64,000 nt of DNA from an uncultured Alphaproteobacteria bacterium (lineage in GTDB: Bacteria; Pseudomonadota; Alphaproteobacteria; HIMB59): assembly GCA_902611415.1 (NCBI GenBank), contig CACLZM010000001.1, forward strand, positions 124,001 to 188,000, written 5' to 3'. The notes beneath the pieces were generated by a model that saw only the letters and a program-made list of their open reading frames with translations, searched no databases and was not told the origin of the DNA. Both the position numbers and the translations under genes were made by a program. The stretch's first letter is position 1. Every line of letters begins with the position of its first letter. Below are positions 3,169 to 11,891 of this stretch, in pieces.

Positions 3169-3840
3169 TTGAATAATAAAATAAATCATTTAGCATTTAT
3201 TATGGATGGAAATAATAGATGGTCAAAAAAAAATAAGATAAGTAAGTTTGACTCATATAAGTATGGTGCTAAAAAACTATTAGAAATTACAGAATTTATT
3301 TTTGAAAATTACGAAATAAATTATATCTCAGCCTTTGCTTTGTCTAAACATAATTTTAAAAGAGGTTCTGTTTTAATAGATATTATCAAAAAAGTTTTAA
3401 ATGATTTTTTAGATCCAACTAAAAAAAAAAATCATTATAAATTTAGAGTTATTTTTAAAGGTAACTTAAATTTTCTACCAAATAAGATTGTTGAAAATTT
3501 AAAAAAATTTGAAAGGAATAATTTAAAAACAAAAAAAAAACTTATAATATATTTAAACTATAGCGGTAAAGATGACATTATTTATGCATCAAAAGCTTTA
3601 TCTCGAATGAAAATATTCGACAAAAAAAAATATCATGAACAACTTTCATCCTCAGGAATTCCAGATCCAGATATATTGATTAGATCAGGAGGCTATCAAA
3701 GAATAAGTGATTTTATGTTATATCAAATTTCATTTACTGAACTTTTTTTTACTAAAAAATTATGGCCAAATATTAAAAAAAATGATGTTAAGAAGTTTAT
3801 TGAAAAGTTTAATAAGATTGATCGAAAATTTGGTAATTGA
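3169..3840 (+). CDS. uppS: Undecaprenyl diphosphate synthase (cis-prenyltransferase)
   Basis: The enzyme condenses isopentenyl diphosphate units onto farnesyl diphosphate to make the C55 carrier lipid for peptidoglycan and O-antigen. The 223-residue protein has the family landmarks: AFIMDGNNRWSKK (Mg and diphosphate site), ISAFALSKHNFKR, and the C-terminal block DPDILIRSGG...QRISDFMLYQ...TELFFTKKLWP. The start is TTG at 3169, 2 bases after frr; no in-frame ATG lies upstream of the conserved MDGN motif. The 3' end overlaps the probable start of cdsA. Confidence 0.95.
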   Translation: MNNKINHLAFIMDGNNRWSKKNKISKFDSYKYGAKKLLEITEFIFENYEINYISAFALSKHNFKRGSVLIDIIKKVLNDFLDPTKKKNHYKFRVIFKGNLNFLPNKIVENLKKFERNNLKTKKKLIIYLNYSGKDDIIYASKALSRMKIFDKKKYHEQLSSSGIPDPDILIRSGGYQRISDFMLYQISFTELFFTKKLWPNIKKNDVKKFIEKFNKIDRKFGN

Positions 3841-4529
3841 TAAAAATAGAATATTTATTGGCTCATTAATATCACTGTTTTTTATATTTGGTTATTTTTT
3901 AAAATTAGACTACATAATATTAATATTTATTTCAGGTTTGATTATATACGATTTATATAAATCAAAATTTTTAAATAATACTAGCGATTATTTAATACTG
4001 ATTTCATTTACGTTTTTATTTCCAATAATTTATTTAAATCATTTAATTATCAATTTATTAAACATACTCATAATTATTTATTAATATTATTTTTCCAAAT
4101 TTTTATTTAAAAAAAATTTTTCTTATTTGTATTCTAATTTTTATTTATAATTTTTTCAGTATTGTTTATATAGATAGAAATTTACTCTATTTTACAATAT
4201 TTATAGCTTTCTTTAATGATACTATTGCTTATATTTTTGGAAAAATATTTAAAGGACCCTTAATTATACCATTCATCAGTCCAAAAAAAACATGGTCTGG
4301 TACTGGGATATCTTTTATTGTTTCATTTTTTTTAATATATAATTTCAATTTCCCAATTTATTTATCAGTTTTATTATCAATATCTTTATTTTTTGGCGAT
4401 ATTTTTTTCTCTTACATTAAAAGGAAAAATGAATTGAAGGATTTTTCTAATATTCTTCAAAATCATGGTGGTATATTAGATAGATTAGATAGTATGTTCT
4501 TTTTTATAATGATTTTAATTTTAATTTAA
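3830..4529 (+). pseudogene. cdsA: Phosphatidate cytidylyltransferase, apparently frameshifted
   Basis: CdsA makes CDP-diacylglycerol from phosphatidate and CTP in the inner membrane. The N-terminal half, with hydrophobic segments such as IFIGSLISLFFIFGYFL, is in one frame that stops at 4082-4084. The C-terminal half, with [36 protein letters not shown] and the signature [11 protein letters not shown], lies in the +1 frame, open from 4074 to the TAA at 4527-4529. Joining them needs one extra base removed between about 4074 and 4084. The likely start is TTG 3830. CdsA is normally essential, so this is either an assembly or sequencing indel or a real frameshift. The overlap has no homopolymer longer than three. 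Confidence 0.8.
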
Positions 4530-4530
4530 T

Positions 4531-5616
4531 ATGACACCAAAAATTCTTATAATTGGTTCGACTGGTAAGCTAGGTATTAAGTTATTAAATTTTTGTCATT
4601 CCAAAAATATAAATATATTTGGTATAACATGTTTTAATAATTATAGATTATTACTTCAACAATCTAAAAAATACAAAATTAATCATTTTTTTAAATTAAG
4701 CGATCATAATGAAAATCTAAATTTCAAATTATTTTTAAAAAAAAATAAATTTGATATCATTTATTTTTTAGATTATGGATATAAATCTTTATTATATATA
4801 AATATTTTTTTAAAATATAATCAAAAATCCCATATTGCTATTGCAAATAAAGAAATGATTATTGCTGGTGGAGATACATTGATAGATAAAATATTTAAAA
4901 CAAATAATAAATTAATTCCATTAGACTCTGAACATTTCTCACTTATAGAAAATAATATTACTAATGAAAAAATAAAAAAAATTTATATTACAGCTTCGGG
5001 TGGTCCATTTTATTTTAAAAAAACAATTAATTTAAATTCAGTAAAATTATCAAAGGTGCTAGATCATCCAAAATGGAAAATGGGTATTAATAATTCTATT
5101 GATTCATCTAACTTCATAAATAAAATTTTGGAAATATTTGAACTCTCAATAATATATAAAATTGATTTGCATAAAATAGATTTTTTAATATCAAGAGAGG
5201 CTTATGTACATAGTTTAGTTATTAATAATAATAATATTATAAATATAAATTGTTTTGATAATGATATGATTTACACATTAGCCAATCCTTTATTTATCTT
5301 CTACCCATCACTAATATTTAAGACAAAAACAACTTTTTTTAAAACTGAGATGCTAAAATTGCAAAAATTTAACGATAAACGTTTTAAAATATATAAGTAC
5401 CTAAGCACTTTAAAAGATTTAACACCTGATAATCAGATAAGATTTATGGTTTTAAATAACATAGCACAAAAAAAATACTTATCTGAGGAAATACGCTATA
5501 ATGAAATAATAAATTTTATCATGAAAAATCTTAATATTTCATCAAAGCCCATGAAATTCAGGACACTTAGTGATAGACTCAAATTTATAGACTCAATTAA
5601 TTTAAATTATGATTAG
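4531..5616 (+). CDS. dxr: 1-deoxy-D-xylulose 5-phosphate reductoisomerase (divergent)
   Basis: Dxr commits DXP to the MEP isoprenoid pathway (NADPH-dependent, divalent metal). The 361-residue protein is shorter than the usual 385-400. It has the NADPH-binding GSTGKLG at the N terminus, AIANKEMIIAGG, the metal-binding IPLDSEHFSL, ITASGGPF and HPKWKMG followed by DSSNFINKILE. The family's basic residue after HPxWxMG is missing (the stretch reads GINNS), and the usual HPQS motif reads SREA before YVHSLV. The position between cdsA and bamA supports the call. It may be a fast-evolving but functional enzyme. It overlaps bamA by 8 bases. Confidence 0.85.
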   Translation: MTPKILIIGSTGKLGIKLLNFCHSKNINIFGITCFNNYRLLLQQSKKYKINHFFKLSDHNENLNFKLFLKKNKFDIIYFLDYGYKSLLYINIFLKYNQKSHIAIANKEMIIAGGDTLIDKIFKTNNKLIPLDSEHFSLIENNITNEKIKKIYITASGGPFYFKKTINLNSVKLSKVLDHPKWKMGINNSIDSSNFINKILEIFELSIIYKIDLHKIDFLISREAYVHSLVINNNNIININCFDNDMIYTLANPLFIFYPSLIFKTKTTFFKTEMLKLQKFNDKRFKIYKYLSTLKDLTPDNQIRFMVLNNIAQKKYLSEEIRYNEIINFIMKNLNISSKPMKFRTLSDRLKFIDSINLNYD

Positions 5617-10008: not shown

Positions 10009-10804
10009 TATCTGTCTAATAGCTGGATCAGGATTATTTGTTAATGAAGTAGCTAATTACCTAAGTAAAAAGAATTTATTAAAACAAATTGTATTAATTG
10101 ATGAAAATAAAAAATTAAAAAAAAATTTTAAAAATAAACTCAAGATATTTAAAATAGAAGATATTGAAAAAATTATATTATTTATTAGATCAAAAAATCT
10201 TAATAATATTTTGATTATTGGTTACGTAAATCTTCCATCTTTTAAAAAATTTAATTTTTCATTAAAGTCAAAGCTTTTGATTTCAAAGGATATATTTTTA
10301 AATAATATTAATAACCAATCAAAAATTTTAAAAAAGTATTTATCAAATAATAAATTAGCTCTCCTTTCTCAAAAAAAAGTATTAAGAGAAATGCTTGTTT
10401 CTTATAATGATAATTATTATCACAACGAAAATAAAAAAATTATAAATGAATTAAAAATTAAAAAAGACTTTATAAAAAAAATATTTTCAATGAACATAGC
10501 ACAATCATTTATTTTAAATGGCGATAGGGTAATAGCTATGGAAGATATATTTGGTACTAATAATATGATAAAAAAAATCGGTAAAATTACATCTAAATTT
10601 AATAATTTGATTTTTGTGAAATCTAAAAAATTAAATCAAATAGATGAAATTGATTTTCCTATAATTGGTATGGAGACACTTTCGTTACTTATAAAATATA
10701 AATTTCGAGCAATTTGTTTATTTAATAATAATATTATTATTTCACAAAAGGAAAATTTTTTAAAAAAAATACGAACAAATAATGTTTCTTTAATCATTTT
10801 ATAA
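9980..10804 (+). CDS. lpxI: UDP-2,3-diacylglucosamine pyrophosphatase LpxI
   Basis: LpxI hydrolyses UDP-2,3-diacylglucosamine to lipid X and replaces LpxH in alphaproteobacteria. The 274-residue protein has the family N terminus (DICLIAGSGLFVNEVANYL), the central block NGDRVIAMEDIFGTNNMIKK, and the C-terminal FPIIGMETLSLLIKYKFRAI. These correspond to the two-domain DUF1009 architecture. The sequence is strongly AT-biased with many Lys/Asn substitutions. It lies between lpxA (29-base overlap) and lpxB (1-base gap), the expected alphaproteobacterial order. Confidence 0.93.
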   Translation: MKNSAISKNDICLIAGSGLFVNEVANYLSKKNLLKQIVLIDENKKLKKNFKNKLKIFKIEDIEKIILFIRSKNLNNILIIGYVNLPSFKKFNFSLKSKLLISKDIFLNNINNQSKILKKYLSNNKLALLSQKKVLREMLVSYNDNYYHNENKKIINELKIKKDFIKKIFSMNIAQSFILNGDRVIAMEDIFGTNNMIKKIGKITSKFNNLIFVKSKKLNQIDEIDFPIIGMETLSLLIKYKFRAICLFNNNIIISQKENFLKKIRTNNVSLIIL

Positions 10805-10805
10805 G

Positions 10806-11891
10806 ATGAAGATTTTATTTATTACTTTTGAACAATCTGGAAGACAAATTGTCAAATCAATACTTGATGATAATTATTTTAAAATTAATAAAAAACAAAT
10901 ATTTACATTTGGTATGAATGAGAGCTATTTAGAATTTAATGATTTAACAAATATAAATATTACCTCAATTATGGGTTTTGTAGATATTGTTAGTAATTTA
11001 AAATATCTTTTCAATCTAAGACTTAAAATCAAAGAAATTGTTGATTTACATTTATTTACTCATATTTTTTTTGTAGATTCATTTGATTTTTCAAAATTTT
11101 ATTTACAAAAATTTAAATCAAACAAAATAAAATATTGTCAAATTGTAGGTCCATCAGTTTTTATCTGGAAATCAAGTAAAGCAAAATTTATTAATAGAAA
11201 TTTTGATAAGATTTTTTCAATCTTTAGTATTGAAAAAAGTTATTACAACTCAAATATCTATAATTATATTGGTCATCCTTTAAAGAACAAAACTTACTAT
11301 TCTAATGATTATAATGAAATCAATAATATTGGTATTTTTTTGGGTAGTAGACAACAAGAAATATATAAAAATATACCTATAATTAAAAAATTATTATTAA
11401 ATCTCAAAAAATATAAAGATCTTGTTTTTAATTTTTTTGTTACAACCGAATATCGTGAAATTATAGAAAACTATTTTAAAGATAATTCTAATATACAAAT
11501 ACATTTGAATGATAATTCTTACTATAAAAAAATATCTAAACTAGATTTTGCTTTTGCTTGTTCAGGGACTGTTCATCTAGAACTATGTTTTTCAAATATA
11601 CCACACTTAATATTTTATAAAGCTAATATTATAAATTATTATATTTTTAAATTGTTTGTAAGATCGAAATACTTATCATTAGTTAATATTTTCAATAAAA
11701 AAGAAATTATAAAAGAGTTCATTCAAAGTGATTTTACAGACACTAATTTGTTAGATTTTTTTACAATTTTAAAATTAAATAAAGATAAGCTTTATAATTA
11801 TAGAAAAAATATGTTTGATGGGACTAAAAGATGTAATTTTGAAAACTTTCGTTCAAGTATAATTACTGATTATTTAGAAAAGTTTTCTTAA
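10806..11891 (+). CDS. lpxB: Lipid-A-disaccharide synthase
   Basis: LpxB (GT-B fold, family GT19) joins UDP-diacylglucosamine and lipid X. The 361-residue protein is slightly short (usually about 380). Recognisable blocks are [51 protein letters not shown] and the donor-binding [20 protein letters not shown]. The N-terminal AGExSGD motif has changed to FEQSGRQ, so the gene is divergent. It ends the + strand operon; its last 29 bases overlap the end of the convergent gltA. Confidence 0.92.

What the first reader, a model, noticed from the sequence alone, without database searches (positions are those of the whole stretch)
4071..4110. Frameshift in the essential cdsA gene
N- and C-terminal parts of a clear CdsA lie in frames that differ by +1; the only junction that keeps both open is 4074-4084. 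The region has no homopolymer longer than three, so a simple homopolymer read error is less obvious than usual. Possibilities are an assembly error, a real mutation (if another cdsA exists), or ribosomal frameshifting.
Basis: seen in the sequence. Interest (0 to 1): 0.5.

Follow-up and report, generated by a model that had tools for sequence, protein, structure and literature searches.

The report
Probable assembly error in cdsA
A gene for an essential membrane-lipid enzyme looks broken in this marine bacterium, but relatives carry it whole and the break sits at one of the most AT-rich spots of the contig, so it is most likely an amplification or assembly error rather than biology.

Summary
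cdsA (CDP-diacylglycerol synthase) is split: the N-terminal frame (3830-4081, 84 codons) ends at TAA 4082, and the catalytic part continues one base out of phase, open from 4074 to 4526. It is not one base too many. The distance between two conserved codons is 375 nt in all 10 distinct close relatives measured and 367 here, so 8 bases are missing at the junction. In the genus search, 23 of 25 genomes with cdsA have one open frame of 237-255 codons; the other broken one, G070, breaks elsewhere. The 81%-complete own genome shows no second cdsA. There is no nearby restart codon and I recognise no slippery site. The junction has 8% GC over 100 nt, a value reached by 0.013% of the contig's windows. 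Of 9 genus genomes with frr but no detected cdsA, 8 have a contig end just past or inside frr. Best explanation: an amplification or assembly error in a hard-to-sequence stretch. A recent real lesion is second; recoding is unlikely. No reads or second assembly were available. Ordinary.

The parts
3830..4084 (+). N-terminal part of cdsA (84 codons from a likely TTG start, overlapping the uppS-type gene), ending at TAA 4082-4084
   Evidence: Frames; alignment with relatives. The start codon is inferred.
4074..4084 (+). Only stretch where the phase can change; 8 bases are missing here relative to close relatives
   Evidence: Stops at 4071 and 4082; the window's own gap of 8 in the alignment, and anchor distance 367 against 375 nt
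4074..4529 (+). C-terminal, catalytic part of cdsA (151 codons, TAA at 4527)
   Evidence: PF01148, 100.2 bits; no ATG, GTG or TTG in frame before 4434
3701..4200 (.). Lowest-GC 500-nt stretch of the whole 229,869-base contig (15.2% GC)
   Evidence: GC around the junction
3169..3840 (+). uppS-type gene upstream (PF01255)
4531..5616 (+). dxr downstream (PF08436, PF02670)

Best explanation
The cell had an ordinary single-frame cdsA. Eight bases were lost when its DNA was amplified, sequenced or assembled, at one of the most AT-rich, low-complexity points of the contig. Shown here: the 8-base shortfall, the intact frame in relatives, the extreme AT content, and the tendency of related assemblies to end at this place. 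Inferred: that the loss is technical, and whether it arose in amplification or in assembly.
For: Private to this assembly: 23 of 25 genus genomes with cdsA have one frame of 237-255 codons. One cdsA only in the own genome and one per genome in the genus, so a true break should be lethal (CdsA essentiality is recalled). Window-specific changes in the C-part fall at codon positions 1, 2, 3 as 11, 3, 20, like the two relatives (11, 7, 26 and 11, 6, 21), so the gene was under constraint until recently. Junction GC 8% over 100 nt, reached by 0.013% of 45,954 windows. Of 9 genomes with frr but no cdsA, 8 have a contig end within 781 bases past frr or inside it. Other faults at the locus: G070 cdsA, G035 frr, an inverted join in G010. 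A workflow for such single-cell genomes reports 3.0 indels per 100 kb (PMC9771814, passage).
Against: No reads and no second assembly of the species were seen. The lesion is 8 bases, unlike the one-base type at A or T runs at the other breaks. AT-rich DNA also suffers real slippage deletions. That this genome is a single-cell genome is inferred from relatives' record titles, two of the four matched titles being labelled MAG. In 6 of 25 merged regions, and in G018 by 500-nt windows, the lowest GC lies outside the 5' half of cdsA. The contig ends near frr do not by themselves prove low coverage.
Confidence: 0.75

Rival explanations
1. A real, very recent 8-base deletion in the sampled cell or its lineage, by replication slippage in AT-rich DNA, which inactivates cdsA; either the cell was doomed or an unseen second enzyme covers for it.
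For: The sequence is slippage-prone (8% GC). The assembly is 81% complete, so a second copy could be missing.
Against: None of 24 genus relatives with a match has a second PF01148 gene. Both parts still look like coding sequence. A lethal allele should be very rare in a sampled cell (inference).
Confidence: 0.17
2. The ribosome changes frame by +1 at 4074-4084 and makes full-length CdsA (recoding or tolerated frameshift).
For: Both frames are open and overlap by eight bases before the stop; the downstream part remains constrained.
Against: No relative seen shares the arrangement. Codons at the junction are ATT ATT TAT TAA with no run above 3 and no SD-like motif in 4001-4110; I recognise no known slippery site. 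An 8-base loss is not what a conserved recoding site would look like.
Confidence: 0.04
3. Two separate polypeptides are made and work together as a split CdsA.
For: The two frames overlap, as coupled genes do.
Against: The C-part has no ATG, GTG or TTG before 4434, inside the conserved core, and only rare-type ATT codons near the junction. Relatives are fused.
Confidence: 0.03

Closest known systems
CdsA, phosphatidate cytidylyltransferase (Pfam PF01148)
   Same: C-part well over the Pfam cut-off; gene order uppS-type, cdsA, dxr as in the genus relatives examined
   Different: Here in two frames, 8 bases shorter than close relatives
Indel and chimera errors of single-cell genome assemblies (PMC9771814, PMC5519541; passages read)
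   Same: Private indel in a conserved gene, at a place where related assemblies end or are faulty
   Different: Longer (8 bases) than the one-base breaks seen in the other genomes; no reads to prove it
Programmed +1 frameshifting or slippage rescue (review PMC5009743, seen in a search listing only)
   Same: Two overlapping frames of one protein
   Different: No recognised slippery site, no homopolymer at the junction, not shared by relatives

Membership tests
CdsA (PF01148) | Profile match of the catalytic part over the curated cut-off | tested here: met
   100.2 bits against 24
CdsA (PF01148) | One continuous reading frame for the whole protein | tested here: not met
   Two frames; relatives have one frame in 23 of 25 genus genomes, G000 counted among the 25
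Assembly or amplification error | Absent from related genomes | tested here: met
Assembly or amplification error | Lies where related assemblies also fail | tested here: met
   8 of 9 genomes with frr but no cdsA have a contig end at the locus
Assembly or amplification error | Raw reads disagree with the assembled sequence | not testable with these tools
   No reads available
Programmed ribosomal frameshifting | Slippery codon or run at the junction | tested here: not met
   Junction codons ATT ATT TAT TAA, longest run 3; judged by eye against remembered motifs
Programmed ribosomal frameshifting | Arrangement conserved in relatives | tested here: not met
   G070 is broken at another place and in another phase

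The most novel reading that the evidence does not exclude
The lineage really carries an out-of-frame, essential cdsA and makes the enzyme by an undescribed +1 recoding at a plain AT-rich site without a homopolymer.
Probability: 0.03. Interest if true: 0.65.

Novelty: not a real feature. Interest (0 to 1): 0.08.

Why it matters
Mainly as a warning. In this group of AT-rich bacteria the uppS-cdsA-dxr stretch is a weak point of assemblies, so a missing or broken cdsA or dxr there should not be read as gene loss. If the frameshift were real, it would mean an essential enzyme made by unusual decoding, or a cell without its normal phospholipid route.

Tried and rejected
A one-base insertion: rejected, since close relatives have 8 bases more, not one fewer.

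A second cdsA: one match only in the own genome. Replacement by a Tam41-type synthase (PF09139): nothing in 52 genomes, but none of the 14 control genomes rang either, so this says nothing.

Loss of cdsA and dxr in about half of the genus (25 and 26 of 52 genomes ring) first looked like a real loss. Where testable it is rejected: the contig ends at the locus in 8 of the 9 genomes that keep frr without cdsA. The ninth, G062, has no contig end there but shows frr and dxr matches with many internal stops. The 18 genomes without an frr match were not examined further.

Frame-break survey over 784 kb of four genomes (G000:C1, G005:C1 and G033:C6 whole, 240 kb of G018:C1): one search listed 2 places in G000, 1 in G005, 1 in G018, 0 in G033. 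I dropped the place at window 10639-10882 in G000 and its counterpart in G018, both seen only against one 81-codon G005 ORF, because + strand genes cover it in the window. G000 cdsA and one G005 gene remain. The detector is weak for short membrane segments: one search missed both broken cdsA genes, and its G001 hit was only the tsf-pyrH boundary.

A 33-base pattern over the N-side in viral contigs: no match. A paper search for amplification errors with frameshift: no paper.

Full report
What was checked. Window 3830-4529 encodes CdsA in two phases. The first frame runs from a likely TTG start at 3830 to TAA 4082 (84 codons). The second has a stop at 4071 and is then open to 4526. The second part scores 100.2 bits against PF01148, cut-off 24; the first has no Pfam match alone but lines up with the N-termini of relatives. 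The neighbours are a PF01255 (uppS-type) gene, frr (PF01765) and a DXP-reductoisomerase gene.

What the lesion is. I measured the distance from a conserved N-terminal arginine codon to the conserved NDT motif. Six more distant rows gave 363-372 nt, all multiples of three. Seven of 24 rows could not be measured because the motif search failed, G070 among them. In a DNA alignment of 12 relative rows with the window, the window has one gap that no other row shares, 8 bases at the junction. So 8 bases are missing, which leaves the rest one base out of phase.

Is it conserved. In one search, 34 of 59 relatives matched the C-part, none with a stop inside the match. In the genus search 25 of 52 genomes matched, G000 included; 23 have an open frame of 237-255 codons, G000 has 151 and G070 has 184. 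G070 is broken at another place, where the overlap of its two frames holds a run of five T. PF01148 finds the same 25 genomes, one match each. The own genome has one match in an assembly that is 81% complete. The arrangement is private to this assembly among those seen.

Was the gene alive until recently. Changes specific to the window, against two near relatives (L003, L032), fall at codon positions 1, 2, 3 as 11, 3, 20 in the C-part; the relatives have 11, 7, 26 and 11, 6, 21. In the N-part the window has 11, 6, 7, against 13, 2, 9 and 14, 5, 16. The N-part is short and gives no clear sign; taken alone its position-2 share is a little higher. The gene is not a long-decayed relic.

Why an artefact is favoured. 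First, composition. The lowest-GC 500-nt stretch of the whole 229,869-base contig is window 3701-4200, 15.2%. The 100 nt around the junction have 8% GC, reached by 0.013% of 45,954 overlapping windows; for 1000-nt windows the figure is 1.4%. The same locus is lowest in G033:C6 and G005:C1; in 240 kb of G018 the lowest stretch lies 1-2 kb further on, and the stretch at cdsA is sixth in that list. In merged regions of 25 genomes the lowest 300 nt lie in the 5' half of cdsA in 19. Second, related assemblies end here. Of 52 genus genomes 34 have frr; 25 of these have cdsA and 9 do not. In 8 of the 9 the contig ends within 781 bases past frr (G004, G011, G029, G031, G065, G069) or inside it (G020, G028). 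The ninth, G062, is not at a contig end. On the 5' side all 30 fetched frr loci have the full 1,500 bases; G020, G028, G035 and G062 were not fetched in that call. The sign test (8 against 0, p = 0.008) counts G020 and G028 and is therefore slightly generous. Third, other breaks at the locus look technical: a frame break in G035 frr among A runs of five and six, the G070 break, and in G010 a join after dxr residue 216 to inverted copies of genes that lie downstream in G000. Inverted joins are, from memory, typical of amplification chimeras. Fourth, contigs of the same lengths as those of G033, G071, G018 and G072 belong to isolates AG-894-P02, AG-917-M17, AG-891-G06 and AG-470-L07. I recall such names as single-cell genomes, although two of these titles begin with 'MAG'. 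[quoted passage not shown] If that applied to 1.24 Mb, about 37 indels would be expected; this is arithmetic, not a measurement. PMC5519541 (two passages) says deletions were slightly more frequent in reads of the newer amplification method, but it found no consistent difference in assemblies, and it reports the fewest errors for the small genome of P. marinus. My own survey found far fewer frame breaks, two real-looking cases in 784 kb of four genomes, with low sensitivity.

What speaks against. The loss is 8 bases, not the one-base type seen at the other breaks. AT-rich DNA also suffers real slippage deletions. There were no reads, no metagenome scans and no second assembly of the species. 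The kind of assembly behind the window is inferred.

Recoding. The junction codons are ATT ATT TAT TAA; the longest run is three; there is no SD-like motif in 4001-4110; and the C-part has no ATG, GTG or TTG before 4434. No relative seen shares the arrangement. Nothing favours programmed frameshifting beyond the open frames themselves.

Taxonomy. The related records are mostly titled uncultured Alphaproteobacteria or Pelagibacteraceae. G030 is one contig of 1,410,127 bases, which I recall as the size of strain HIMB59, so the HIMB59/AEGEAN-169 group is likely but not shown. PMC10308909 (passages) gives that group 27.0-32.5% GC; the window has 27.5% and its contig 30.6%.

Verdict. A correct observation of a lesion in an ordinary gene, most likely technical; low interest.

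Noticed in passing
L142, about 1241-1957 (G070): cdsA of a relative is also broken, at a different place and in another phase; the overlap of its two frames holds a run of five T.
   Followed up: partly
L189, about 2346-2582 (G030, one-contig genome): dxr is split into two frames next to a run of ten A. In a complete genome this could be a sequencing error or a true poly-A slippage site; worth a look.
   Followed up: partly
L164 (G035), frr: Ribosome recycling factor is split into two frames among A runs of five and six.
   Followed up: partly
L194 and L215 (G010): After dxr residue 216 the contig continues with inverted copies of genes that lie a few kb downstream in G000, like an amplification chimera.
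   Followed up: partly
L118 (G005:C1, about 59,670 of the contig): A conserved 189-codon gene is broken near a run of T.
   Followed up: partly
G062:C3:5874-8745: frr and dxr match with many internal stops in several frames, as an uncorrected long-read assembly might show.
   Followed up: no
G004, G011, G020, G028, G029, G031, G065, G069, 3' of frr: Contigs of eight genus genomes end at or just past frr, before cdsA: a repeated assembly break.
   Followed up: yes
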